From: a virus
DNA: 64,000 nucleotides
Reading direction: 5' to 3' (one strand)
Virus record (IMG/VR): IMGVR_UViG_3300019458_000021
Location: 173,380 to 237,379 of that record
The notes below the pieces were generated by a model. That model ran no database searches. It was not told the DNA's origin and saw only the letters and a list, made by a program, of their open reading frames with translations. Made by a program: the position numbers and the translations under genes. Below are positions 997-47,375 of the stretch, piece after piece. Position 1 is the first letter of the stretch. Every line of letters starts with the position of its first letter.

Positions 997-1475
997 TGGC
1001 AGATCCAACAAACATATTCCAAAAACTCGAACCAAAAGACAGTATAGCGTTTCGCCTGCTTCTTGAACGACACGTGCAACTGGAAGAAGAGTACGACCTT
1101 GCTCGGCAGAGCTTAACATTCAAAGGTAAGACGCTAGCGCAGGCAAACAATGATCAAGCCGAATGGCCGATCTACGTTGACGAACGACTTTCCGAACTTA
1201 AAACAATCTGTAAACGACTAGAAACCGTTGTGGATATGGTTCGGGGAAACATTGTTCGGCAGCTCAAGGGTGGCAGTGGGCTTGATTTAGGTCGCGACCT
1301 CACTCGCTACGTTGACCGTGACGACAAGTTCCTTGATGCTCAGGAACGATTCCTGATGTTTGACGAACTCCGTGAAAAGTATGCAGCACTTTCCGAAGCA
1401 TGGACCACAAGGGGGTATGCTTTGAAGAACAGAGTGGACATGTTGGTACATCAGGTAAAAGACAACCTGTTATAA
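996..1475 (+). CDS. uvsY: UvsY-like recombination mediator (tentative)
   Basis: This is a 159-residue, mostly helical protein immediately upstream of uvsW, the T4 neighbourhood of UvsY. T4 UvsY (137 aa) ends in a pattern of long helix plus 'K-S-R-x-F-A-I-K-H' before the C-terminus. Here residues 135-155 read ALSEAWTTRGYALKNRVDML, which is similar in spacing and character. UvsY loads the UvsX recombinase on ssDNA coated with gp32. The call depends on synteny and a weak C-terminal resemblance. It could instead be an unrelated helical protein. Confidence 0.5.
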   Translation: MADPTNIFQKLEPKDSIAFRLLLERHVQLEEEYDLARQSLTFKGKTLAQANNDQAEWPIYVDERLSELKTICKRLETVVDMVRGNIVRQLKGGSGLDLGRDLTRYVDRDDKFLDAQERFLMFDELREKYAALSEAWTTRGYALKNRVDMLVHQVKDNLL

Positions 1476-1477
1476 AC

Positions 1478-2995
1478 ATGCAAATACGAATAAGGATACT
1501 GAATGAAGTATACGTTGTTGTTCTGGATCTTCTACCAGAGCACGTCGATTACTTCTACGAAAAATACGCTGTTCATGCGCCGAACTACTTCTTCAATCCG
1601 CGCTACAAACTAGGCCAGTGGGACGGTAAGATTCGCTTCTTTCACAAGACGGGCAAGACATACTTGTACCTGTTGGAAGACCTCTTGCCGCGTATCGTCA
1701 ATCTTGGCTACAAGGTCGTCTTAGAAGACCTGCGTGACAACGTTCTGGTTGCAGCCGACGAAATCGATGCTGACTTGTTTAACGCCGTAAAGCATCCTGA
1801 CACAGGTGAAGCTACGGTACTTCGCGAACATCAGGTTGCAGCTGTAAATTCACTTATCCGAGAAGGTTTTGGTACAGTGATAGCATCAACCGGATCTGGC
1901 AAAACTCTAATGTGTGCTGCGTTGTGTTATCAGTATGATAAGTTTGGATTGAAGTCGTTAACAATCGTTCCAAACAAGGACTTGATTCGTCAAACACGCC
2001 AAACATACATTCATTACGGACTCGACACAGGCGAATATAGCGGCGAACGAAAGACACTTGGACATCAACACGTTGTTTCAACGTGGCAAGCACTTAAGAA
2101 TGCACCGGAAGTGATCACGATGTTCAACATTGTCATCGTCGATGAGGCGCATGGTTTGAAAGGCAATGTCCTGTCAACAATCCTGACCGACCATGCTGCA
2201 AAGGTCCCGTATCGCTTTGGTTTCACTGGTACGCTGCCAAAGGACAAATCTGATGCTTGGGCTGTTCATGTGGCCGTTGGTCCAGTCCGCTACCAAGTTC
2301 CAGCTTTTGAACTGATCGAGAAGGGACTTCTTGCCAAGATCAATATTGATGTGGTCCAACTGACTGAAGATCTGACTGAAGAGTACGACCAATTCATTGC
2401 CGACACACCAAACATTCCCAATAATGAGCAGCCGACGTATGCAGAGTTCAAAGAAGGCTACTTTCCAGACTTTACAGCTGAGAAGTCATACTTGCAACAC
2501 AAGGAAGACCGGATCACATATCTTGCGCAGTATATTGAAGCAAAGCGGGATGCAAAAAGGGGAAACGTTCTCTGTCTCATAGACAACATTGCATTTGGTC
2601 GAAAACTCGCTGCAGAAATCAATGGAGCTATTTTCGTCAATGGTAAGGATGTTAGATCAACGAAGGAACGAAAACAGATCTATGACTTGTTTGCTTCTCA
2701 CGACGATCTTGTCGTGATTGCTACGGTCCACATTGCAGGAACTGGCATTGACATTCACCGCATCTTCAACCTAATGTTAATCGATATTGGAAAATCATTC
2801 ATTCGAGTGATCCAAGCAATTGGTCGAGGACTGCGCATGGCAGAAGACAAGGATAGCGTTCACATCTCTGATTTGACGAGCGATTTAAAGTACAGTCGCA
2901 AACATATGCGAGAGCGAATAAAGTTCTACAAAGAAGCTCAATACCCTCATAAGCTACACAAAATCAACTACTCGAAGCTTGTCCTCGAGGACTAA
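1478..2995 (+). CDS. uvsW: UvsW-type SF2 DNA/RNA helicase
   Basis: This 505-residue protein has an N-terminal domain typical of T4 UvsW (FNPRYKLGQWDGKIR, residues 42-56) followed by two RecA-like domains. Visible motifs are Walker A ASTGSGKT, DEAH (VIVDEAHG), motif III-like FTGTL, and motif VI QAIGRGLR near residue 450. UvsW unwinds branched DNA and R-loops and helps switch replication from origin to recombination mode. A longer frame extends to 1400, but it overlaps uvsY. The ATG at 1478, three bases after the uvsY stop, begins the conserved N-terminal strand (MQIRIRIL) and is preferred. Confidence 0.93.
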   Translation: MQIRIRILNEVYVVVLDLLPEHVDYFYEKYAVHAPNYFFNPRYKLGQWDGKIRFFHKTGKTYLYLLEDLLPRIVNLGYKVVLEDLRDNVLVAADEIDADLFNAVKHPDTGEATVLREHQVAAVNSLIREGFGTVIASTGSGKTLMCAALCYQYDKFGLKSLTIVPNKDLIRQTRQTYIHYGLDTGEYSGERKTLGHQHVVSTWQALKNAPEVITMFNIVIVDEAHGLKGNVLSTILTDHAAKVPYRFGFTGTLPKDKSDAWAVHVAVGPVRYQVPAFELIEKGLLAKINIDVVQLTEDLTEEYDQFIADTPNIPNNEQPTYAEFKEGYFPDFTAEKSYLQHKEDRITYLAQYIEAKRDAKRGNVLCLIDNIAFGRKLAAEINGAIFVNGKDVRSTKERKQIYDLFASHDDLVVIATVHIAGTGIDIHRIFNLMLIDIGKSFIRVIQAIGRGLRMAEDKDSVHISDLTSDLKYSRKHMRERIKFYKEAQYPHKLHKINYSKLVLED

Positions 2996-3013: not shown

Positions 3014-3505
3014 ATGCTGATTTTTGACACTGAAAACAAGCCTGTCCTTTTAGACAGCATTTACACCCCGACGTTGACTGATCATATGTGGGTTCTTGAT
3101 TTGAACCTCATGGACTTTACAATGTCTCCCTTGCTTGTCCTTGAGGAGATTGTGTGTCCGGTAATTGTTGTCGCGGTTAGAGGCTTCGAGTTTCCTCTGC
3201 CAGCAAATTGGAACATTCTCGTGTACGACACAGACACATCACAGCTTGATGTGATTGAGGTTGCAGAGGCTGCTGGACGTGAGTTCACTGCACTGGTGTA
3301 TGGACCGAACAAGGCGAATTTCGGTGCGGGAATTGTCTCAGTGACAAACTACTTCGCTGAGTTCCGTATTGTTGCCCCCTCATTAAACAAACATCAAATG
3401 TTGTGTCATCCAATTGGACCAGACGAATGGGTAACGGTCTCTCCATCTGACGGGTACAACAAGTATTTGAAGGGTCGGATCGTTGGTGACCTAATAGGAT
3501 ATTGA
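3014..3505 (+). CDS. Hypothetical protein (163 aa), probably leaderless
   Basis: Not recognised. The first 60 residues alternate beta-type hydrophobic stretches (VLLDSIYTPTL, MWVLDLNLM). The C-terminus is basic (YLKGRIVGDLIGY). There is no signal peptide. Translation from 3014 has no Shine-Dalgarno and sits 6 bases after a TATAAT box, so it would be a leaderless message. The next in-frame ATG is too far in to keep the fold. The last 23 bases of the gene are repeated upstream of the following gene. Confidence 0.65.
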   Translation: MLIFDTENKPVLLDSIYTPTLTDHMWVLDLNLMDFTMSPLLVLEEIVCPVIVVAVRGFEFPLPANWNILVYDTDTSQLDVIEVAEAAGREFTALVYGPNKANFGAGIVSVTNYFAEFRIVAPSLNKHQMLCHPIGPDEWVTVSPSDGYNKYLKGRIVGDLIGY

Positions 3506-3575: not shown

Positions 3576-3971
3576 ATGGCAGAGAAAAAAGAAAAGAAAC
3601 TCACAGTCAAAGAGTTCAAATACTGGCTTGAAGGTGTCGAAGAAATGCAAGATGAAGGCTGGTATCCCGATCCGCGCCAATGGAAACGCATTCGCGAAAA
3701 GATAGGACTGCTTGACGAGGCCGCCTCAATGATGACTGAAGTTCAGGCTGCTGGACTTACGTCAATTGCCCCTGGTATAATGGCATTTCCTCCAAATGTG
3801 AATCCAAACAATCCGTTGGAACGAATGAACATTGATCCAGCTAACTTTCCACAACCGACTGCTCGTCCACCAGGCAATGGCCCGTTCTTAAACGATGACA
3901 CATCCAAACCAGCCAAGACCCCAAACATCGACACCGGACCGGGTAAGCCTTACGCAAGCTCATTTACATAG
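3576..3971 (+). CDS. Small phage protein with basic helical N-terminus (131 aa)
   Basis: The N-terminal ~45 residues form an amphipathic helical block (LTVKEFKYWLEGVEEMQ ... PRQWKRIREKIGLL). The rest is Pro/Asn-rich and probably disordered, ending TGPGKPYASS. I do not know a function for it. An ATG at 3570 is in frame, but AGG at 3565-3567 is better spaced for the ATG at 3576. Its 3' end overlaps the DnaE-like gene that follows in a different frame. Confidence 0.75.
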   Translation: MAEKKEKKLTVKEFKYWLEGVEEMQDEGWYPDPRQWKRIREKIGLLDEAASMMTEVQAAGLTSIAPGIMAFPPNVNPNNPLERMNIDPANFPQPTARPPGNGPFLNDDTSKPAKTPNIDTGPGKPYASSFT

Positions 3972-4494
3972 TACAACGCTGAAAGACCGCACCCTTTGGT
4001 TTGATGGTGATTCGTCGTTCAACTCAGATACGTTGTACGACGCCGTTCAGAAGTATGACGTAAAGTTTGTCGATTGGATCTCACCTCTCGTTGCCCAATA
4101 CAATCGTCAAGTTCAGACCGATCAAGAACTCACTGTCAAAACACGATGCAAGCCTTTAACGTTTGACTGGACGATTCCTGAGAAGTACGCTAAACTTGAC
4201 ATTGTGCAGCATATCGCCGACAAGCATTGGGCTGTCTTGCGGACGTGCCCGGAACAGGAGTGGGAAGATCGCGAACTTCGCCTCGTTTCAGAGCTACGGA
4301 ACTATCAGAAGCGGAATTTGTACGGCGTTTTACGCGTAATCATTTTCGTCATAAATACCTTAACCGACAATGATATAGTGTGGGGTGTCGGCCGTGGCAG
4401 CAGCGTGTCGTCTTATGTCTTGTATGTGATAGGTGTTCACGACGTGGATAGCTTTGCATATGATCTCGACGTCGACGACTTCCTGCACGATTAG
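3895..4494 (+). CDS. DnaE-like (C-family polymerase) N-terminal palm fragment
   Basis: The last ~55 residues carry the DnaE/PolC palm signature: WGVGRGSSVSSYVLY, then the I-x-x-x-D-V-D-x-x-x-Y-D element, ending VDDFLHD. In bacterial DnaE this stretch reads G-P-G-R-G-S-[AG]-[AG]-S-L-V-A-Y ... F-E-R-F-L-N and is followed at once by M-P-D-x-D-[IV]-D-F with two catalytic Asp. Here the protein stops exactly before that motif, which opens the protein at 35082. No PHP, exonuclease or finger domain is present. The start is uncertain: the ATG at 3895 overlaps the previous gene by 77 bases and has no clear SD, and no other ATG/GTG/TTG lies before the conserved part. Confidence 0.8.
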   Translation: MTHPNQPRPQTSTPDRVSLTQAHLHSTTLKDRTLWFDGDSSFNSDTLYDAVQKYDVKFVDWISPLVAQYNRQVQTDQELTVKTRCKPLTFDWTIPEKYAKLDIVQHIADKHWAVLRTCPEQEWEDRELRLVSELRNYQKRNLYGVLRVIIFVINTLTDNDIVWGVGRGSSVSSYVLYVIGVHDVDSFAYDLDVDDFLHD

Positions 4495-5375: not shown

Positions 5376-6584
5376 ATGCTGTTCATTGCCATGTTGATTG
5401 CTACAACAATAGCAATCGCAGGATCTGCTGCTTACTTTAGCGTGTATGGTCTTGCGTATACGTTCAGTGGGATGTTCTGGTATGTTGTTGTTATGGGAGC
5501 ATCTCTTGAAGCTGGTAAACTGATGTCCGCTTCGTATCTTTACCGATACTGGTCAAAGATGGGTGGGTGGACGTGGCTTCGATACTACATGATTGCTGGT
5601 ATTCTGGCGTTGATGTTTCTGACGTCTGCTGGCATTTTCGGCTTCTTGTCATCTGGTTATCAGGCAGATGTCCTTCCGTTGAAACAGAAAGAAGCACAAG
5701 TCAAGCTTCTTGAGGACGAAAAGGTCCGTAAGCTTGCTCGGAAACAACAAATAGACGACCTGATCGCCCGATCTCCAATAGTGCAAAATCTTGAGCGTAA
5801 CGGCGAGATCGACCGTCGCGCAATGCTTGTGTTGCGCGAAAGCACACGCGCACGAGACAGTTTGACCCGACAGTATAAGGCAGAACAGACCGAAGTCACG
5901 AAGCGACTGAATGAACTCGACAAAGAGATCCTTGCGCTTCAACAAGAAATCATCAAGACAGAAGCACATATTGGTCCGATTACCTACATCGCGAAGGCGT
6001 TTGGTTATGAAACGGATCAAGCAACAAAGTACCTGATCTTCATAATCATCTTTGCGTTCGACCCAATGGCAATCGCTTTGACGCTCGGCGTGAACATCGC
6101 TTTGCGAGTCCGTAATAACGAACGGCGACCAATGCCAGAGATCAAACCTCGCGAATCGATGCTGCCTGAACCAAAACACACACCACCAATGCCAGAGATC
6201 AAACAGCATCCAAAGCAGGAGATTGACCCTCGTGAATTCATTGGAGAACTGTTGCCCGAACCAAAACACACACCACCAATGCCAGAGATCGAACAGCCTC
6301 ACGCTGTTCGAGCAGAAATTCTTCCGGTAAAGATTCCAATTTCAGAGCCTGTTGTTGAGAAAAAACCTGAACAGCCTGTTGAAAAACGCATTCGTCCACG
6401 ATACATTGACGAACTGGCCGCAAGTAGTGGTGCGATCAACCCCGATGCGCTATACGAATTGATCAGCTACTATCGTGAACTAAAGGCGAAGCCTCATCCT
6501 TTAACGGGTCAAGACCTTGTTGACAAGCACGCAATCGAGAACATTCTTCGTAGTCATGGATTGATGTTATACTTCAACGAGTAG
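5376..6584 (+). CDS. Membrane protein with coiled coil and Pro-rich repeats (402 aa)
   Basis: There are three hydrophobic segments near the N-terminus: about residues 1-24 (MLFIAMLIATTIAIAG), 25-45 (LAYTFSGMFWYVVVMG) and 68-92 (YYMIAGILALMFLTSAGIFGF). A long charged coiled coil follows (about 100-195), then a further membrane stretch (about 218-245, YLIFIIIFAFDPMAIALTLG). A Pro-rich cytoplasmic-type tail has PPMPEI repeats. Such proteins recur in large phages but I know no proven function; envelope remodelling or superinfection immunity are guesses. It follows the GroES-like gene by 2 bases, with GGAG before its ATG. Confidence 0.8.
   Translation: MLFIAMLIATTIAIAGSAAYFSVYGLAYTFSGMFWYVVVMGASLEAGKLMSASYLYRYWSKMGGWTWLRYYMIAGILALMFLTSAGIFGFLSSGYQADVLPLKQKEAQVKLLEDEKVRKLARKQQIDDLIARSPIVQNLERNGEIDRRAMLVLRESTRARDSLTRQYKAEQTEVTKRLNELDKEILALQQEIIKTEAHIGPITYIAKAFGYETDQATKYLIFIIIFAFDPMAIALTLGVNIALRVRNNERRPMPEIKPRESMLPEPKHTPPMPEIKQHPKQEIDPREFIGELLPEPKHTPPMPEIEQPHAVRAEILPVKIPISEPVVEKKPEQPVEKRIRPRYIDELAASSGAINPDALYELISYYRELKAKPHPLTGQDLVDKHAIENILRSHGLMLYFNE
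6168..6290 (+). repeat. Two 33 bp direct repeats coding for PPMPEI motif
   Basis: Copies at 6168-6200 and 6258-6290 are spaced exactly 90 bp (30 codons), so the protein repeat stays in frame. A partial third copy of the last part lies at 6128-6143. They encode E-P-K-H-T-P-P-M-P-E-I in the tail of the membrane protein. Confidence 0.85.
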
Positions 6585-6636: not shown

Positions 6637-7566
6637 ATGCAAGATAAGCATAAGCTTTGGGTCGAAAAATACAGACCCTCTGCAATAGAAGACTACATTT
6701 TTCACGACGGACATCAACGGGCCTCATTCGAGGTGATGATTGCAAATAAAACGATCCCACACCTACTTTTGTCTGGTGTTCAAGGATCTGGTAAGACAAC
6801 AATCGCTCGAATCCTTATCAGTGCAATGGAACTTGACAACAGTGATGTGCTGAAGATCAACGCTTCACGAGAAAACACCGTTGAAGTGGTTCGTGAGAAG
6901 ATTCAAAGCTTCGTTTCCACGTTCGCAATGAGTGACTTCAAGGTTGTGTACCTCGAAGAAGCGGACTACATCACGTTGAACGGTCAAGCCGTAATGCGCA
7001 ATATCATGGAACAGTATTCGAATCACGTCCGGTTCCTACTAACTTGTAACTACGCCCATCGAATCATGCCCGCTATCGTGTCGCGATGCCAACACTTCCA
7101 TTTCAAAGCTCCGCCAAAAGCAGAAGTAGCAAGCTACTGCTATGAAATTCTTGGCCGGGAACGAATCAACTTCTCCGATGCGACGTTGATCAAATACATA
7201 ACGCACGGCTATCCGGACATTCGCAAGATCGTCAATTCGTTACAACAGAATTCGAGTACTGGTGAGCTTCTTGATCCAAAGCTAGAAGGCGCTGCCGGTG
7301 ATTGGAAGTTCCAACTGATCGACATGATTGAACAGAATAAGTGGAATGAAGCTAGGAAACTGGTGTGTGCGAGTGTTGATGGAGAAGAGTGGGTCGAATT
7401 GTACAGATTCCTCTACGAGAATCTACGTCGAGGCCTCAAGTTTCAAGACACTGCAAAGTGGGAGGAAGGAATTCTCACGATTGCAAAACATCTATACCAG
7501 CATGGTGTTGTTGCTGATCCCGAGATCAATGCAGCTGCCATGTTTATCAGCTTAGGACAACTATAA
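6637..7566 (+). CDS. 44: Sliding-clamp loader ATPase subunit (gp44-like)
   Basis: This is a 309-residue AAA+ clamp loader. It opens WVEKYRP, the RFC/gp44 signature. Walker A is GVQGSGKTT (47-55), the Walker B region is VVYLEEAD (near 106-113), and the SRC arginine-finger motif IVSRCQHF follows near 146. It loads the gp45 clamp on primer-template with the small subunit. As in T4, the partner gp62-like gene lies just downstream. It overlaps the following gene by one base. Confidence 0.93.
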   Translation: MQDKHKLWVEKYRPSAIEDYIFHDGHQRASFEVMIANKTIPHLLLSGVQGSGKTTIARILISAMELDNSDVLKINASRENTVEVVREKIQSFVSTFAMSDFKVVYLEEADYITLNGQAVMRNIMEQYSNHVRFLLTCNYAHRIMPAIVSRCQHFHFKAPPKAEVASYCYEILGRERINFSDATLIKYITHGYPDIRKIVNSLQQNSSTGELLDPKLEGAAGDWKFQLIDMIEQNKWNEARKLVCASVDGEEWVELYRFLYENLRRGLKFQDTAKWEEGILTIAKHLYQHGVVADPEINAAAMFISLGQL

Positions 7567-7931: not shown

Positions 7932-8860
7932 ACAAGGAACTATTGAACTATCTTCGTCATCTTTCCGAAGAAGACATCAAATCACTTTCACAGCGAGCTC
8001 TGAAAACGTGTGAAGAAGTTGGTGAGCTCGCTCGTGTTGTTTTGCCTTATGACGGAGCATATGCAACAAATCATCGTTTTGCGACCCGCGAGGATATTCT
8101 CGAAGAAGCTGTCGATACGGTGTTCTGTGCTTTATCAGTTGCTCATGCGCTTCAGTTTACCGACGAAGAAATTGAAGATATGATGTGGCTGAAAGCGGAA
8201 AAGTGGGCTCGACTGCAACACAACGAAAAGAACCTGAAATACCCAGTACCATTTGAGATTCATATTACTGTTGAACTGGATCCAATGATAGAAGATTCCG
8301 AGCGATTCAAAACAACATGCGCCGAGGCGAACGTAAAACCACTTGATCTCGTAACACAAACAAGAACGATCAAAGATGTGATGACATCATCAAAACATTT
8401 CGGAGACAATCGGTCGGCCTATGAAGAGATGAAACGAATTACTGGCCGTTTGATGGCAGCAGGATTCATGGTAGTTCGAGAAAAGATTGAAACTGTTTCT
8501 TGGCATCCAGCCGCTCCACAACACATCGGTGATGGTTCAAAAATGCCAGAGAATTGCTATTTTGAAAGTCATATTCCTGTTCGACTCCATCCAAATGATA
8601 TGGATATTCTTACTCGTCGTTGTAAGGAAATGGATCTACATCTTTCCCGAAATGGCTTTAAGACACACGAAGACGGTGACGTGACATACATGGCAACATA
8701 TCGAGTATATGAAGGCACCAATGAACAGTTCCGTGCATATGTAGATCAGGCCGTTCAATATCTTGACGCCCAGGAATACATCGTTGGAAAACCAATGAAC
8801 GAATTTAGCGTATATGATACGAAAGTGAGCCACGACGCAAAATGGCTGACCGGAAACTAA
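7928..8860 (+). CDS. MazG-like NTP pyrophosphohydrolase fused to a second conserved domain
   Basis: Residues 1-95 carry the MazG helix pattern: CEEVGELARV (E29/E30 ... E33) and ILEEAVDTVF (ExxD near 60), the Mg-binding signature of all-alpha NTP pyrophosphohydrolases. The remaining ~215 residues form a second domain with repeated beta-strand starts (FEIHITVEL at about 103, FESHIPVRL at about 215) and the elements SSKHFGDN and SWHPAAP. I do not recognise this domain. MazG enzymes hydrolyse (d)NTPs to NMPs, and phage homologues are linked to nucleotide pools. The gene sits inside the clamp-loader operon. Confidence 0.7.
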   Translation: MNKELLNYLRHLSEEDIKSLSQRALKTCEEVGELARVVLPYDGAYATNHRFATREDILEEAVDTVFCALSVAHALQFTDEEIEDMMWLKAEKWARLQHNEKNLKYPVPFEIHITVELDPMIEDSERFKTTCAEANVKPLDLVTQTRTIKDVMTSSKHFGDNRSAYEEMKRITGRLMAAGFMVVREKIETVSWHPAAPQHIGDGSKMPENCYFESHIPVRLHPNDMDILTRRCKEMDLHLSRNGFKTHEDGDVTYMATYRVYEGTNEQFRAYVDQAVQYLDAQEYIVGKPMNEFSVYDTKVSHDAKWLTGN

Positions 8861-9303
8861 ACCTATTCGAACTGCTAGGAGCTATTAGTGAGAAAAACAC
8901 TGGCTACTATCAAAATCTGACAGATGAAGAACTGAAAGAGCTTCAACCGTTTGTCATCATGCGATGGCTAACGGGAACGTCAAGCAAACGACAAGTGTAC
9001 CTTTTGAATGCTGTTGTAAATCCATTCGTGTTCGATCTTGGACAGCATAAACAGTTGTTGTTCTATCTTCTGACGTTGTGTACTCAGCACGCGCAACGAT
9101 ACAACTGGATCAAACCACCCAGCTCAAAACGGCTGGGCAAATTAGCGGTGACGGTCCTGTGTGATTACTTCAAGTACACAAAACGACAAGCAATTGATGC
9201 TGCGAAACTTTTGCAATCAGAAGACATTCTGGACTATGCCGAACAATTAGGTTGGCAAAAAGAAGAGATCGCTAAGCTGAAAAAAGAGCTAAAAGGCGAC
9301 TGA
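8842..9303 (+). CDS. 62: Clamp-loader small subunit (gp62-like, tentative)
   Basis: A 153-residue protein opening NLFELLGAISEK. The pattern PFVIMRWLTG ... RQVYLLNAVVNP (about 32-55) resembles the gp62 core found in T4-like phages (P-F-x-x-x-R-x-L/W-S ... N-E-M-N). The C-terminal third has TKRQAIDAAKLL, similar to the helix that ends phage gp62 proteins. It is shorter than T4 gp62 (187 aa), as in several distant T4-like phages. Synteny with gp44 supports the call, but two genes intervene. Confidence 0.6.
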   Translation: MADRKLNLFELLGAISEKNTGYYQNLTDEELKELQPFVIMRWLTGTSSKRQVYLLNAVVNPFVFDLGQHKQLLFYLLTLCTQHAQRYNWIKPPSSKRLGKLAVTVLCDYFKYTKRQAIDAAKLLQSEDILDYAEQLGWQKEEIAKLKKELKGD

Positions 9304-10016
9304 TGTTGGGACTGACAATGACGAAATCGCCAACAAAATACAAGGCGGCATACACATGCAAGTATTGTTCCCACACGTTTGTTCACGAGAACAGATACTT
9401 GCAGCACAAGTGCAAGCAAATGAAACGGCTGGAAGAATTCCAGACACCAGAAGGGCAAGCTGCGTGGCTACATTATCAACAATGGCTCCGTGCTCAGAAA
9501 CGAATGCCACCTCCAGCGAAATCATTTCTTACGTCGAAGTATTACAGAACGTTTGTTAACTTTGCCAAGCATGTTAAAGCAGTCGGGCTACCAAAGGCGG
9601 AAAAGTTCATCTGGTTAATGCAGGAAAAGGGCTTGCAACCGTCGATTTGGACGTCGGATGAAGTGTACTCGCTATACCTAGAACACCTTGATCGAAACAC
9701 ACTGCCTGTCGAGCAGGCAAAGATGTCGATTGATACGCTGCTTAATCTAGCAGATCAGAAAGGAACGGACGTTTCGACTGTGTTTGAGGTTTTGACACCT
9801 ATTGACGTGATCTATCTACTTCGAACTCGCCAACTATCACCATGGTTCTTACTGCGGAGCCGCAAGTTCAAGCAACTGTTCAAAGACAAGGCATCCCCCG
9901 AGCAGCAAGTGATCCTTGAAACGATCATTCGGCCAGATTACTGGCTTGAGAAATTCGAAAAACACCCCAAAGAACTCGCTGAAATCAACAAGTACGTTGC
10001 CGCTCTGGACTTATAG
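9303..10016 (+). CDS. Zinc-finger-containing hypothetical protein (237 aa)
   Basis: It begins with a C2H2-type finger: YTCKYCSHTF (CxxC) then HENRYLQHKC, with His/Cys ligands about 12-17 residues on. The remaining ~200 residues are helical and basic. The finger suggests nucleic-acid binding. Its position at the end of the clamp-loader operon would suit a replication or translational regulator (regA occupies this place in T4), but there is no sequence resemblance to RegA that I can see. An ATG at 9318 is an alternative start. Confidence 0.65.
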   Translation: MLGLTMTKSPTKYKAAYTCKYCSHTFVHENRYLQHKCKQMKRLEEFQTPEGQAAWLHYQQWLRAQKRMPPPAKSFLTSKYYRTFVNFAKHVKAVGLPKAEKFIWLMQEKGLQPSIWTSDEVYSLYLEHLDRNTLPVEQAKMSIDTLLNLADQKGTDVSTVFEVLTPIDVIYLLRTRQLSPWFLLRSRKFKQLFKDKASPEQQVILETIIRPDYWLEKFEKHPKELAEINKYVAALDL

Positions 10017-31061: not shown

Positions 31062-33287
31062 ATGACAATTGCTCGGTCATTCTTCAGGCAGGCTACAGGA
31101 AATTTACAGGGAGCAATGTTGTTTGGCTGGGGAAATGCTACCACAGCAGAAACAGGCACTGGTCTGGGATCAATCACAGGCATATTTGGTCAGTGGGCAA
31201 TGGCACCAATTTTTCCAATTGATAATCTTAGTTGGAACACATTGAGTGTCGGTGCTGCACACACCCTTGGAATTAAATCAGACGGCACGTTGTGGGCGTG
31301 GGGTGAAAATACAAACGGAGCACTTGGTGATGGAACTATAACATCAAGATCGTCCCCTGTGCAAATTGGAACGTCAAGTTGGTTATCTGTTAGTGCTGGT
31401 AATGCTAATAGTTTCGGTATTCGTCTTGACGGTGCATTATTCGCCTGGGGGACAAACACAAGTGGTCATCTAGGTACCGGCAACACAACAAACTTTTCAT
31501 CGCCAGTGCAAATTGGAACATCAAGTTGGTCAATGGTTAGTTCTGGTGAACTTTGGACTGCTGCACTTCGCAGTGATGGAGTTTTGTTTACCTGGGGCAA
31601 CGCTGGAGACGGTAAACTCGGTGACGGAACAATCACTAGTAAATCATCGCCCGTTCAAATCGGTGCATCAGTCTGGACGTCAGTTAGTGCTGGTTCACAC
31701 CACGGTGCATCTATTCGCTCAGATGGAGCTTTATTCACATGGGGTCGAGGCGTAAACGGACAACTAGGTGACGGAACGTCGGTTAGTAAGTCATCGCCAG
31801 TGCAAATCGGAACATCAAGTTGGAGCATAGTAGACGCTGGTCAAGATCACACAATGGGCATTAAAATAGATGCAACGCTTTGGGCTTGGGGTGCAGGCAC
31901 AAACGGAAAACTTGGTGATGGAACAACCGTTTCTAAATCTTCCCCTGTTCAAATTGGTACGTCTAGTTGGAATGCTGTTGCGGCTGGTCGTGAATTCACT
32001 TTCGCTATACGGTTAGATGGTATGCTGTTTTCTTGGGGTGAAAACGATAGTGGTTTGCCTGGACAACTTGCGAATTTGACATTCACAAACACTTCCTCCC
32101 CTGTTCAAGTTGCTTCAACAGCTAGTTGGACAATGGTGTCGACTGCTAGAACGACAAATGGAAACTCAGGCATGACTGGTGGAAAACGAACTAACGGTCA
32201 AATTTACATTTTTGGTAACGGTCCTGGTGGTGAGGAATTCGGATTCACCTATTGGGTCCCTGCTACTATTAGTCAAACACTGCCGTATCCATCCGCCTAT
32301 GCTGAACATCCAACATCTAGTGCACAAGCACGAAGCTGGAGTGTGATCAGCTCCGGTGACAACTGGAGTGTTGGCATTCGTTCTGATGGTAGTCTTTGGT
32401 CGTGGGGGACAAACACTAACGGGCAACTTGGAAATGGAACAACCGCTGCTACGTGGCCGCCTACACAAATCGGTGCGTCTAGTTGGACTGCTATAGCGGC
32501 TGGACCGAGTCATGTAGTTGCCATTCGTTCGGATGGTGGATTGTTTACCTGGGGTGCTAACGGTCAGGGACAACTTGGTGATGGATCAACAACAGCAAGA
32601 TCCTCACCAGCTCAAGTTGGTACTGAGAGTTGGGTTGTTGTTACTGCTGGAGGACATGGAACATTCGGTCATTTCTCTGGTGGCATAAGGATTGGTGGAG
32701 CCTTGTTTATGTGGGGCAGAAACAGCGAAGGTGCACTTGGTGATGGCACAACAACAAACAAATCGTCACCTGTGCAAATTGGAACATCGAGTTGGAATGC
32801 TGTTGCTACTGGTGATTTCCACACGGTTGCAATTCGATCAGGCGGCTCACTATTTGCATGGGGATTTAACGGCAGTGGACAAGTTGGTGATGGATCAACA
32901 ACAAACAGATCATCTCCTGTGCAAATTGGAACATCGAGTTGGAATGCTGTTGCAGCAGGCGAATCATTTACTGCTGCAATCCGAAACGGAGGTAATATTT
33001 TCACATGGGGCAACGGTGGAAATGGTCGTCTTGGTGATGGAACTATCGTTTCCAAGTCATCACCTGTGCAGATCGGAACCTCGGTGTGGACACAGATTAC
33101 GACCGGTTTCGCATATGTGCTTGCTATACGAAGCGACAACGCTCTCTTTGCATGGGGCAACAACGCAAGCGGACAACTTGGTGATGGAACGGTCACAAGC
33201 AGATCGTCCCCTGTACAGATTGGTTCTTCCTACCAATGGTCAAGAATTTCCGGTGGTATTGATAGTTCGCTTGCCGTTGCAACTTAA
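31062..33287 (+). CDS. Double RCC1-type beta-propeller protein (741 aa)
   Basis: Twelve clear ~50-residue RCC1 blades are visible, each with the consensus AIRSDG-x-LF-x-WG ... GQLGDGT ... SSPVQIGTSSW. Six lie before and six after a degenerate ~70-residue stretch (about 350-425), with half-blades at each end (LFGWGN near residue 24; SSLAVAT at the C-terminus). This arrangement suggests two seven-bladed propellers closed by split blades. RCC1 folds bind proteins or glycans. Between two fibre genes, a receptor-binding or fibre-tip role is likely. It follows the Gly-rich gene by 9 bases. Confidence 0.85.
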   Translation: MTIARSFFRQATGNLQGAMLFGWGNATTAETGTGLGSITGIFGQWAMAPIFPIDNLSWNTLSVGAAHTLGIKSDGTLWAWGENTNGALGDGTITSRSSPVQIGTSSWLSVSAGNANSFGIRLDGALFAWGTNTSGHLGTGNTTNFSSPVQIGTSSWSMVSSGELWTAALRSDGVLFTWGNAGDGKLGDGTITSKSSPVQIGASVWTSVSAGSHHGASIRSDGALFTWGRGVNGQLGDGTSVSKSSPVQIGTSSWSIVDAGQDHTMGIKIDATLWAWGAGTNGKLGDGTTVSKSSPVQIGTSSWNAVAAGREFTFAIRLDGMLFSWGENDSGLPGQLANLTFTNTSSPVQVASTASWTMVSTARTTNGNSGMTGGKRTNGQIYIFGNGPGGEEFGFTYWVPATISQTLPYPSAYAEHPTSSAQARSWSVISSGDNWSVGIRSDGSLWSWGTNTNGQLGNGTTAATWPPTQIGASSWTAIAAGPSHVVAIRSDGGLFTWGANGQGQLGDGSTTARSSPAQVGTESWVVVTAGGHGTFGHFSGGIRIGGALFMWGRNSEGALGDGTTTNKSSPVQIGTSSWNAVATGDFHTVAIRSGGSLFAWGFNGSGQVGDGSTTNRSSPVQIGTSSWNAVAAGESFTAAIRNGGNIFTWGNGGNGRLGDGTIVSKSSPVQIGTSVWTQITTGFAYVLAIRSDNALFAWGNNASGQLGDGTVTSRSSPVQIGSSYQWSRISGGIDSSLAVAT

Positions 33288-35081: not shown

Positions 35082-35672
35082 ATGGCTGACATTGATATTG
35101 ACTTTCGTACCGACTTTGATCCAAAGCGCGTCTTCAAACAGATCATTCCTGCTTCGATCATCAAGAACGATGATCTCGAGAAGCACAACTGTGGACACTA
35201 TTTTCAAACGATTCCTGTTGATCCTGTCACAGGGTTAGCAGCTATTCCTTATGAAGAAGCAGAGGTCTTGGGATACTTTAAGATTGACTTCTTACATCTG
35301 GCTGTGTTAGACAACTTCACAAGCAAAGACGAAATTCGAAAGCTGATTCGTCAATCACCTGATTGGACCCTTTTATTACACGAGGAACACGTTTCAAAAC
35401 TCTTCCAAGTCCATAAACGAGCCGACTTGTTGAAACGAATTCGGCCAAATTCAGTTCAGGAATTGGCCGATTGCATTGCATTGATTAGACCATCAAAGAA
35501 ATATCTCATAAATAGATATGTAACAGAGATTAACAATAGAGAAACAATACAAAGAGAATTATACGAAAAACCAACAGAGGGTGGTAGTAAATGGTTTAAA
35601 AAAGCTCATGCGATCAGTTACGCGTTGACAATAGTGCTTCAGTTACACCTTATCCAACAAGGAAAGTTGTAG
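35082..35672 (+). CDS. DnaE-like catalytic palm/finger fragment (second half of split gene)
   Basis: This 196-residue protein opens MADIDIDF, the DnaE catalytic motif (M-P-D-[FI]-D-[VI]-D-F) with two metal-binding Asp. In DnaE order it then shows KHNCGHYF (for KHAGG), LGYFKIDFLHL (for LVKFDFLGL, third catalytic Asp), KRIRPNSVQELADCIALIRPS (for the finger element ending ALxRPGP) and KKAHAISYALTIVLQL (for the N-K-S-H-[AS]-x-x-Y-x-x-x-[SV]-Y-Q region). It lacks the tau-, beta-clamp- and OB-domains. It complements the fragment at 3895-4494, 30 kb away, which ends exactly where this begins. Confidence 0.85.
   Translation: MADIDIDFRTDFDPKRVFKQIIPASIIKNDDLEKHNCGHYFQTIPVDPVTGLAAIPYEEAEVLGYFKIDFLHLAVLDNFTSKDEIRKLIRQSPDWTLLLHEEHVSKLFQVHKRADLLKRIRPNSVQELADCIALIRPSKKYLINRYVTEINNRETIQRELYEKPTEGGSKWFKKAHAISYALTIVLQLHLIQQGKL
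35507..35514 (+). promoter_or_regulatory. Possible late promoter CATAAATA inside DnaE-like gene
   Basis: CATAAATA at 35507-35514, 256 bases before the next gene. It could supply late transcripts of the 35770 gene or be a chance match in an A/T-rich coding stretch. Confidence 0.3.
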
Positions 35673-35769: not shown

Positions 35770-36234
35770 ATGAAAACACTTGCCACAATCAATTTGAGCG
35801 ACAACCAAAAGCGCGTTATGGCGAAAATTCTTGCTGCGCCAACACCAAAAGTAGCACTTGACAGCATCAGTAAGAATCAAAGCTTGATCGCAGCTCGTGA
35901 CCAGCTCGCAAAGATTGGAATGGTTTCACTGAATCCCAATGGTGCATCGGTAACAGACAAAGGTACAAAGGTGATGCAAGACGAAGCACTTGTTGATGAG
36001 GGTGGACAACTAACGCCAGATGGTGAACAACTTGCACACACGGACGTGGATGGCAAGCCAGAACAAGACAAAGCCGCTTCTCCCACGCCGACTGATATGA
36101 TGGGACAGCCAGAACAACAGCCACAGGCACCGGCTCCAGGTACTCCGCCACCTCAAAGCCAACCAGATCAACTCCAGTTGCAAAGTGTCAACTGGGAACG
36201 ATTCAAGTTACTTCGGGAACTGCTCAAAGGGTAA
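35770..36234 (+). CDS. Hypothetical protein with helix-turn-helix-like N-terminus (154 aa)
   Basis: Residues 1-65 have a winged-helix look (LSDNQKRVMAKILAAPTPKVAL ... LAKIGMVSLNPNGASVTDKGTKVM), then a Gln/Pro-rich linker and a short helical end WERFKLLRELLKG. The function is unknown; DNA binding is plausible. It ends 27 bases inside the convergent gene on the minus strand. Confidence 0.7.
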   Translation: MKTLATINLSDNQKRVMAKILAAPTPKVALDSISKNQSLIAARDQLAKIGMVSLNPNGASVTDKGTKVMQDEALVDEGGQLTPDGEQLAHTDVDGKPEQDKAASPTPTDMMGQPEQQPQAPAPGTPPPQSQPDQLQLQSVNWERFKLLRELLKG

Positions 36235-36684
36235 TACTGTAGTTGAGTATCGAATCTCGACACCCGCAGGAAGAGCCTTGCGTCGTCGACGCTTGATACT
36301 TTTCACCTGTGCCATGGGAAACTTTGGCACAGGACCAATCACTCTAGAGATGAATTCAACGTTTAACGAACGATAGATTCGTGACGTTTCGCTAGTCATT
36401 CCACGGCGAGAGAATTCAACCGAGACAGGGAATCGGGAGCGATTCTCGAAGTACCAATCCGCTGCAGCAACAATCAAAAATTCTTCATTAACACTTTCAG
36501 CGCCGCAGTAATCAAGAACGAACGCTTTAATTGTTTCGTCGTCAGCGTTGTCAACAATCGCAAGCATTGGCTGCTTGCGATAGACGATCATGGTTACGAA
36601 TGGATAGCCTTTGTATTCTTTCGGGTGTGCTTCAATGATGAGCGGAACGTTGGTTTTCTTTGCTGTCTTCTTTTTGACCGTCAT
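36208..36684 (-). CDS. Hypothetical protein (158 aa)
   Basis: Not recognised. Features are a Lys-rich start (MTVKKKTAKKTNV), an alpha/beta core (FVTMIVYRKQPMLAIVDNADDE, EEFLIVAAADWYFE) and a basic tail (KSIKRRRRKAL). A longer frame exists, but GGAGG precisely precedes the ATG at 36684 and a late promoter lies just upstream. It is convergent with the 35770 gene. Confidence 0.75.
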   Translation of the reverse strand: MTVKKKTAKKTNVPLIIEAHPKEYKGYPFVTMIVYRKQPMLAIVDNADDETIKAFVLDYCGAESVNEEFLIVAAADWYFENRSRFPVSVEFSRRGMTSETSRIYRSLNVEFISRVIGPVPKFPMAQVKSIKRRRRKALPAGVEIRYSTTVLPFEQFPK

Positions 36685-36704
36685 TACAACCTCCAGAGTG
36701 GGGT

Positions 36705-36712
36705 TATTTATC
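36705..36712 (-). promoter_or_regulatory. T4-type late promoter GATAAATA (minus strand)
   Basis: The complement of TATTTATC at 36705-36712. The expected RNA start is near 36699, giving a 15-base leader with GGAGG before the ATG at 36684. Confidence 0.65.
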
Positions 36713-36766
36713 GGATGGGTACCACGCTTAAAACACAAAGTAAATATGTCAAAGGAGGGGCAAAAT

Positions 36767-36976
36767 ATGTGCGTTGTCAGTGTGATTACCGAATACGGTC
36801 GCGATAGAATGAGTGCTCCCTGGACGCCAGAACAGTTACAAGCATTCAAAGTTCTGATCGAGCAGGCGCAGAAATTTGACAAGTTAACCGATCAACCGAA
36901 CTGCGAGGATCCTGCAAAAGCTGTGTGGATTGCAGGTGTTGAAGAATCAGTTGGAGCCATCAAGAATGACGTTTGA
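36767..36976 (+). CDS. Small hypothetical protein upstream of sod (69 aa)
   Basis: Start chosen at 36767 because AAAGGAGGGG (36749-36758) precedes it at normal spacing. It is a small acidic protein, MCVVSVITEYGRD ... TPEQLQAFKVLIEQAQKFDKL, ending GAIKNDV. It overlaps the superoxide dismutase start by 11 bases. Its function is unknown. Confidence 0.6.
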   Translation: MCVVSVITEYGRDRMSAPWTPEQLQAFKVLIEQAQKFDKLTDQPNCEDPAKAVWIAGVEESVGAIKNDV

Positions 36977-37568
36977 ATGCCCGCCACTCAAGTTCGCTCA
37001 CGACGCGCTTGAGCCATATCTCTCGAAAGAGAATGTTGCACTCCATTACGAGAAGCACACAAAAGGGTACTTCAAAAAGACGAATGAGTTGATCGAAGGC
37101 ACTGACTTTGCAAAGGCCAAGTCGCTCGAAGACCTTCTAACAAAAGACAACTTGATGAAGGCGGACAGCAAACTATTCAATCAAGCTGCACAAGCGTGGA
37201 ACCATACATTCTGGTGGGAAAATCTTGCAGCAAATGGCGGTGACAAAAATCCATCACATGAATTGATGGAAGAGATTGATAATCACTTCACCGACTTCAT
37301 AACATTCAAGAAGAAGTTTGTTGAAGCCGGAATGGGCCAGTTCGGTAGTGGTTGGGTGTGGCTTGTTTGGAAGAACCGATCGCTGTCAATCGCAACAACA
37401 CCAAATGCAGGTACGCCACTTACAACACATGCAAAACCATTGCTTGTTGTTGATGTGTGGGAGCATGCTTATTATCCGACATACTTTAATGATCGCGAGA
37501 AATATTTGAAGAAGATTTGGACCATTGTAGACTGGGGCACGATCAATGAGCGATTCGGAAAACTTTGA
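36966..37568 (+). CDS. sodB: Fe-type superoxide dismutase
   Basis: This 200-residue protein has full-length Fe/Mn-SOD architecture. Metal ligands are visible: H27 (ALHYEKH), H80 (AWNHTFWW), D163 and H167 (VDVWEHAYY). Q76 in QAAQAWNH and the NAGTPL loop are Fe-type rather than Mn-type markers. The enzyme converts superoxide to H2O2 and O2 in the cytoplasm. The start at 36966 overlaps the small gene before it. SODs are uncommon phage cargo. Protection of Fe-S enzymes or of host metabolism during infection is a reasonable inference. No signal peptide is present. Confidence 0.93.
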   Translation: MTFECPPLKFAHDALEPYLSKENVALHYEKHTKGYFKKTNELIEGTDFAKAKSLEDLLTKDNLMKADSKLFNQAAQAWNHTFWWENLAANGGDKNPSHELMEEIDNHFTDFITFKKKFVEAGMGQFGSGWVWLVWKNRSLSIATTPNAGTPLTTHAKPLLVVDVWEHAYYPTYFNDREKYLKKIWTIVDWGTINERFGKL

Positions 37569-44559: not shown

Positions 44560-44636
44560 TGGTCGGAGTGGCAGGATTTGAACCCGCGTCTTCCACGTCC
44601 CAAACGTGGCCGTCTACCAGACTGGCTTACACTCCG
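44560..44636 (-). tRNA. tRNA-Pro (UGG)
   Basis: A complete 77-base cloverleaf on the minus strand: acceptor CGGAGTG/CACTCCG, discriminator A, encoded CCA, anticodon stem CCACG/CGTGG with loop TTTGGGA (anticodon TGG), and a T-loop with GGTTCAAATCC. It decodes CCA (and by wobble other CCN codons). Confidence 0.93.
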
Positions 44637-46996: not shown

Positions 46997-47073
46997 TGGT
47001 CGGCGATGGAGGATTTGAACCTCCGGCCTCTTGCTCCCAAAGCAAGCAGTCTACCAGGCTGACCTAATCGCCG
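46997..47073 (-). tRNA. tRNA-Pro (UGG), second copy
   Basis: A 77-base cloverleaf: acceptor CGGCGAT/ATCGCCG, discriminator A, encoded CCA, anticodon stem CTTGC/GCAAG with loop TTTGGGA (anticodon TGG), and T-arm GGAGGTTCAAATCCTCC. It has the same anticodon as the tRNA at 44560-44636, but the acceptor and anticodon stems differ, so it is not a recent duplicate. Confidence 0.92.
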
Positions 47074-47250: not shown

Positions 47251-47302
47251 TCCGTTCGCTAAGGACGTGTCTTACTTCACCCTAGGAGGTCCATTGTTGT
47301 TT

Positions 47303-47375
47303 GGTGGAGGATGAGAGAGTCGAACTCTCGAGTACGCCGTGCAAAGGCGTCAGTTTCCCACTAGCTTAATCCCCC
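47303..47375 (-). tRNA. tRNA-Ala (UGC)
   Basis: A 73-base cloverleaf: acceptor GGGGGAT/ATCCTCC (one G-T pair), discriminator A, encoded CCA, anticodon stem ACGCC/GGCGT with loop TTTGCAC (anticodon TGC), and T-arm GAGAGTTCGACTCTC. Confidence 0.93.

What the first reader, a model, noticed from the sequence alone, without database searches (positions are those of the whole stretch)
3895..4494. N-terminal half of a split, miniature DnaE polymerase
Seen: the protein ends in the DnaE palm run (GVGRGSSVSSYVLY ... DVDDFLHD) and stops immediately before the catalytic motif. The complementary gene at 35082 starts with that motif. Known: DnaE palm motifs and their order. Inference: an ancestral DnaE-like gene was split exactly between F-L-N-P-E-R and M-P-D-x-D-x-D-F, with PHP, clamp- and tau-binding parts lost. 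Possible roles are a heterodimeric polymerase or a regulatory relic alongside the T4-type replisome.
Basis: partly seen in the sequence, partly recalled or inferred. Interest (0 to 1): 0.9.

Follow-up and report, generated by a model that had tools for sequence, protein, structure and literature searches.

The report
Two-piece mini Pol III in jumbo phage
A large phage carries a stripped-down copy of the bacterial replicative DNA polymerase core, cut into two small proteins whose genes lie 30 kb apart; the same two-gene set occurs across many large phages and was described in 2021, but I found no report that anyone has tested what it does.

Summary
The protein at 3895-4494 is the N-terminal part of a Pol III alpha (DnaE) palm, ending about 30 residues after GRGS. 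The protein at 35082-35672 starts at the catalytic DxDxD motif and also carries the third catalytic Asp (KxD) and the RP and KxH motifs. Both match Pol III alpha in Pfam, in PDB sequences and by fold (AlphaFold pLDDT 90 and 95).

It is not a relic. Among 93 distinct N parts and 144 distinct C parts, GxGRGS, DxDxD, KxD, RP and H176 are invariant; dN/dS is about 0.16 (N) and 0.08 (C). The cut falls at the same place throughout, and no fused mini version turned up. Each gene occurs once in 9/9 complete phage genomes and 15/15 IMG/VR records of at least 160 kb. A family B polymerase is present in 24 of 25 records tested. The genes sit among clamp-loader, UvsW, primase and helicase genes.

It is not new. 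Iyer et al. 2021 (PMC7824862) described this split minimal Pol III alpha in group 2.2 jumbo phages. This window is a new member; I add catalytic invariance, the fixed split point, co-occurrence and synteny. Assembly and activity remain untested. I give 0.75 that the two parts form one active enzyme.

The parts
3895..4494 (+). N part of split mini Pol III alpha (199 aa; start codon uncertain): GS-motif / NTP-binding side of the palm
   Evidence: Pfam PF07733 E=2.3e-9; phrog_11127 E=1.2e-36; AlphaFold pLDDT 89.8; best PDB folds are Pol III alpha
4384..4404 (+). GVGRGSS motif (residues 164-170)
   Evidence: G164, G166, R167, G168, S169 invariant in 94 rows (93 homologues plus window)
35082..35672 (+). 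C part of split mini Pol III alpha (196 aa): catalytic carboxylates plus minimal fingers
   Evidence: Pfam PF17657 E=3.9e-5; phrog_11778 E=1e-65; AlphaFold pLDDT 95.0, pTM 0.85; PDB fold hits Pol III alpha E=1.5e-4, prob 1.00
35088..35105 (+). DIDIDF: first two catalytic Asp (D3, D5) and D7
   Evidence: D3, D5, D7 invariant in 145 rows (144 homologues plus window); aligned to T. aquaticus 463/465
35280..35288 (+). KID: K67 and third catalytic Asp D69
   Evidence: K67 and D69 invariant in 145 rows; aligned to T. aquaticus K616/D618
35487..35492 (+). R136-P137 (fingers RPG-type motif)
   Evidence: invariant in 145 rows
35601..35609 (+). KAH (K174, H176), counterpart of the DnaE NKSH motif
   Evidence: H176 invariant in 145 rows
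1400..2995 (+). UvsW-type helicase (ORF start may be later), neighbour of the N part
   Evidence: phrog_16 E=8.6e-70
3014..3505 (+). Conserved neighbour of unknown function (phrog_11279)
   Evidence: E=2.9e-31; near the N part in 23/79 and the C part in 53/80 loci
6637..7566 (+). Clamp loader ATPase (gp44 type), 2.1 kb downstream of the N part
   Evidence: phrog_168 E=3e-72; found near the N part in 70/79 loci, median 1.7 kb
8842..9303 (+). Clamp loader small subunit (gp62-like)
   Evidence: phrog_225 E=1.7e-8; near the C part in 56/80 loci
9303..10016 (+). phrog_11058 protein; elsewhere the usual upstream neighbour of the C part
   Evidence: E=3.5e-50; median 202 bp upstream of the C part in 74/80 loci
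36208..36882 (-). phrog_11637 protein, convergent gene that follows the C part in many relatives
   Evidence: E=3.2e-21; relative found near the C part in 35-63/80 loci depending on query, always on the opposite strand

Best explanation
The two genes encode the two subunits of a minimal family C (Pol III alpha-type) nucleotidyltransferase. The N subunit supplies the GxGRGSS (GS) turn that grips the incoming nucleotide. The C subunit supplies the three metal-binding Asp and a minimal fingers region. Neither half holds a full active site, so they most likely assemble without covalent joining into one pol-beta-like palm that adds nucleotides in the phage replisome, beside a T4-type family B polymerase. 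Shown here: family membership of each half, complementary coverage of one palm, invariant catalytic residues, purifying selection, fixed split point, co-occurrence, and replisome gene neighbourhoods. Inferred: physical assembly and catalysis. More speculative still: a job in primer extension or gap filling, suggested by the primase and helicase genes that follow the C part in relatives and by the loss of the thumb-sized segment and clamp-binding parts.
For: HMM, PDB-sequence and fold evidence for both halves. The N part aligns to T. aquaticus 377-454 and the C part to 461-547, 609-717 and 807-823, so they follow one another without overlap. GxGRGS is invariant in 93 distinct N parts, and D3, D5, D7, H35, G38, K67, D69, R136, P137 and H176 in 144 distinct C parts. 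dN/dS median is 0.16 (N, 5 pairs) and 0.08 (C, 100 pairs). One copy of each half in 9/9 complete phage records and 15/15 IMG/VR records of at least 160 kb (own record). Family B polymerase in 24/25 records including this one. gp44 near the N part in 70/79 loci; phrog_11058, gp62, primase and gp41 near the C part in 74, 56, 55 and 44 of 80 loci. The same interpretation was published by Iyer et al. 2021.
Against: No complex prediction and no biochemistry. The thumb-sized segment, most of the fingers, the clamp-binding part and PHP are missing, so processive synthesis is doubtful. Co-occurrence and correlated distances (r=0.70) are also expected from shared ancestry. Homologues were collected with patterns that in part include GxGRGS, the GxFKxD region and the IR/KKxH stretches, which biases those invariances; DxDxD was never part of a search pattern.
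Confidence: 0.75

Rival explanations
1. Catalytically dead scaffold or regulator derived from DnaE that binds DNA or the replisome without adding nucleotides.
For: Both proteins are short, the thumb-sized segment and the clamp-binding part are gone, and a full family B polymerase is present.
Against: All metal-binding Asp, the GS motif, K67 and H176 are invariant over 93/144 distinct proteins, many only 28-40% identical to the window proteins; a scaffold would not need them.
Confidence: 0.1
2. The pair is an active nucleotidyltransferase but not a templated DNA polymerase, for example a terminal or RNA-end nucleotide-adding enzyme.
For: The retained parts are mainly the pol-beta-type core; the thumb-sized segment and most of the fingers that hold the template duplex are missing. 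Jumbo phages carry other pol-beta-like end-modifying enzymes (PMC7824862).
Against: The RP and KxH fingers motifs of Pol III alpha are kept, and the gene neighbours are replisome genes, not RNA-repair genes.
Confidence: 0.12
3. The two messages or proteins are joined after expression by trans-splicing (split intein or split intron), giving one ordinary polypeptide.
For: Split inteins occur in cyanobacterial DnaE, and a split family B polymerase with an intein is reported in the related phage MIJ3 (PMC6892783).
Against: The N gene stops directly after DFLHD and the next gene starts 10 bases later; the C gene starts at MADIDIDF, 15 bases after the upstream gene. There is no room for intein halves, and no Rfam intron was found in the window. 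In 87 of 93 homologues the N part stops 29-31 residues after GRGS.
Confidence: 0.03

Closest known systems
Split minimal Pol III alpha of group 2.2 jumbo phages (Iyer et al. 2021, PMC7824862; PHROG 11127 and 11778)
   Same: Same two proteins, same division of the palm, distantly located genes, beside a family B polymerase in T4-type large phages.
   Different: A new, uncultured phage; the C gene lies 30.6 kb from the N gene, beside RCC1-repeat and superoxide dismutase genes rather than in the replication cluster.
Bacterial Pol III alpha / DnaE (family C)
   Same: GS motif, catalytic Asp triad, KxD, RP and KxH motifs in the same order.
   Different: About 395 aa in two chains instead of about 1,160 aa in one; no PHP, thumb-sized segment, clamp-binding, OB or C-terminal domains.
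Single-chain, PHP-less phage DnaE-like polymerases (about 565 aa; marine contigs)
   Same: No PHP domain either; family C palm.
   Different: One chain and larger; in some marine contigs present alongside the mini C part.
Cyanobacterial split DnaE
   Same: DnaE encoded by two genes.
   Different: That split is at an intein near the FNKSH motif (from memory) and the halves are joined by protein splicing; here there is no intein and the cut is between FL(NPER) and DxDxD.

Membership tests
Split minimal Pol III alpha of group 2.2 jumbo phages | N part with GS/NTP-binding motif as a separate protein | tested here: met
Split minimal Pol III alpha of group 2.2 jumbo phages | C part with catalytic Asp as a separate protein encoded far away | tested here: met
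   30.6 kb apart in the window; 4.9 to over 200 kb in other records
Split minimal Pol III alpha of group 2.2 jumbo phages | Accompanied by a family B polymerase and a T4-type clamp loader | tested here: met
   G000:C1:69230-70432, 904-aa frame; gp44 at 6637-7566
Family C DNA polymerase (Pol III alpha) | Pol-beta-like palm with GS motif and three catalytic Asp | tested here: met
Family C DNA polymerase (Pol III alpha) | PHP domain | tested here: not met
   No PHP match in either protein; the N part matches Pfam only from residue 119 on
Family C DNA polymerase (Pol III alpha) | Thumb, full fingers, clamp-binding and C-terminal domains | tested here: not met
   64 residues between D5 and D69 against 153 in T. 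aquaticus; the C part ends just after KxH
Family C DNA polymerase (Pol III alpha) | Template-directed DNA synthesis | not testable with these tools
   needs purified proteins
Family C DNA polymerase (Pol III alpha) | Single active site built from both chains (physical assembly) | not testable with these tools
Cyanobacterial split-intein DnaE | Intein halves at the junction | tested here: not met
   N part ends and C part begins at the palm itself

The most novel reading that the evidence does not exclude
The two-gene mini Pol III is a non-covalent heterodimeric polymerase of about 370 folded residues that works as a Pol alpha-like primer extender for the phage family B polymerase, and it descends from a form of Pol III alpha that was never a single chain.
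Probability: 0.1. Interest if true: 0.85.

Novelty: new member of a known kind. Interest (0 to 1): 0.45.

Why it matters
If the pair is active it would be among the smallest replicative-type polymerase cores, with the nucleotide-binding and metal-binding sides of the active site on different chains. It would show how little of Pol III alpha is needed for catalysis, and it would mean that large T4-type phages run two unrelated polymerases. It is in easily grown E. coli phages such as 121Q, so the question can be tested directly.

Tried and rejected
Relic: rejected on invariance and dN/dS. Intein or intron trans-splicing: rejected on gene ends and no Rfam intron. Fused mini version: sought with a joined N+C alignment in viral and genome contigs and by scanning ORFs of all loci then held; only ordinary DnaE or DnaE2-like (ImuC-type) proteins and an about 565-aa phage DnaE carry both regions. 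A second full Pol III alpha in this phage: none found by the N profile, which does detect full-length DnaE elsewhere. A DnaQ-type exonuclease in this record: none found by PF00929. The N-C distance correlation (r=0.70) was not used as evidence of binding, since shared ancestry gives the same. A blastn of an ordinary DnaE stretch against phages added nothing.

Full report
What is in the sequence. The ORF at 3895-4494 encodes 199 aa ending GVGRGSSVSSYVLYVIGVHDVDSFAYDLDVDDFLHD. The ORF at 35082-35672 encodes 196 aa beginning MADIDIDF. Pfam finds DNA_pol3_alpha in the first (E=2.3e-9) and the Pol III fingers domain in the second (E=3.9e-5), both above curated cut-offs. PHROG places them in two 'DNA polymerase' families, 11127 and 11778. 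The window is the last 64 kb of a 237-kb viral record.

Which parts of Pol III alpha are kept. Profiles of the two families match solved Pol III alpha chains one after the other. The N profile covers T. aquaticus 377-454 (E. coli 285-392). The C profile covers T. aquaticus 461-547, 609-717 and 807-823. The aligned catalytic residues are D463, D465 and D618 in T. aquaticus and D3, D5 and D69 in the C part. From D5 to D69 there are 64 residues where T. aquaticus has 153, and the stretch between the RP and KxH motifs is also about 75 residues shorter. By the known domain order of DnaE (from memory), these losses are the thumb and most of the fingers; PHP, clamp-binding, OB and C-terminal parts are absent too.

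Structure. AlphaFold with alignments of window and viral-contig relatives gives pLDDT 95.0 (C part) and 89.8 (N part). Foldseek against the PDB lists Pol III alpha entries at ranks 1-13 for the C part (best E 1.5e-4, probability 1.00) and ranks 1-9 for the N part (E 0.03-0.25, probability 0.85-1.00), with nothing else close. The pair could not be modelled together.

Constraint. In 93 distinct N parts, G164, G166, R167, G168, S169, R129 and E133 never vary. In 144 distinct C parts, D3, D5, D7, H35, G38, K67, D69, W95, R136, P137 and H176 never vary. The search patterns included GxGRGS, the IR and KKxH stretches and, in one scan, the GxFKxD region, so those are partly selected for; DxDxD was not in any pattern. 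dN/dS medians are 0.16 for N (only 5 pairs) and 0.08 for C (100 pairs). A relic is therefore unlikely.

The cut is fixed. In 87 of 93 N parts the stop comes 29-31 residues after GRGS. In nearly all C parts a possible start codon lies 1-7 residues before DxDxD. No ORF joined the two mini parts, even when searched for with a joined alignment. This fits one ancient event, either a split or a two-piece origin.

Co-occurrence and neighbourhood. Each half is present once in all nine complete phage records examined (XacN1, RAS14, Atu_ph07, 121Q, Cassandra, Slicko01, XaC1, SCTP-2, Phosso) and in all 15 IMG/VR records of at least 160 kb tested; shorter fragments sometimes show only one. Records were picked because they held one half, so the test is whether the other half is also there. 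Distances run from 4.9 kb to over 200 kb. A family B polymerase is found in 24 of 25 records, including this one at record 69230-70432. The N part lies about 1.7 kb upstream of the clamp loader gp44 in 70 of 79 loci. The C part follows phrog_11058 (74 of 80), with gp62, UvsW, primase and gp41 nearby (56, 50, 55 and 44 of 80). In this window UvsW, the N part, gp44, gp62 and phrog_11058 form one cluster (1.4-10 kb), while the C part sits 25 kb further on, so it appears to have moved out of its usual place.

What is known. Iyer et al. [quoted passage not shown] Earlier genome papers had noted a truncated alpha subunit in CBB and an alpha subunit in Atu_ph07. The finding is thus a new member of a described kind. 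My searches of the open library found no experimental work on it.

Mechanism. With the GS turn on one chain and all three metal-binding Asp on the other, the simplest reading is an obligate heterodimer with one shared active site. Gene neighbours point to replication. Loss of the thumb-sized and clamp-binding parts argues against long processive synthesis and makes primer extension, gap filling or repair more likely; this last step is inference.

Noticed in passing
L042:8745-10442, L047:5384-7120, L083:8872-10572, L085:6182-7888, L090:13121-14821: Marine phage contigs that carry the mini C part also carry, about 4-7 kb downstream, a separate single-chain PHP-less DnaE of about 565 aa with its own DxDxD motif. 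These contigs (up to 91 kb) show no mini N part and no family B polymerase, but they are fragments.
   Followed up: partly
L401 (LR756508.1, 484 kb): A huge uncultured phage with an unsplit 575-aa DnaE plus a family B polymerase and no split mini pair found; possible unsplit relative.
   Followed up: partly
36960-37568 (+): Phage-encoded Fe/Mn superoxide dismutase, both domains matched (Pfam E=3.7e-35 and 4.2e-22), about 1.3 kb after the C part.
   Followed up: no
31062-33287 (+): 741-aa protein made of RCC1 repeats (11 stretches), upstream of the C part.
   Followed up: no
5376-6584 (+): 402-aa protein whose start looks membrane-spanning, with proline-rich repeats (MPEIKPRESMLPEPKHTPP...); no Pfam or PHROG match; a relative lies near the N part in 24/79 loci.
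   Followed up: no
44560-44636, 46997-47073, 47302-47375 (-): Three tRNA genes: two tRNA-Pro(TGG) and one tRNA-Ala(TGC).
   Followed up: no
G009, W03 (Atu_ph07), W05 (Cassandra): The family B polymerase match falls in two or more separate open frames in these records, and a split one with an intein is reported for MIJ3; gene breakage of polymerases looks common in this phage group.
   Followed up: no
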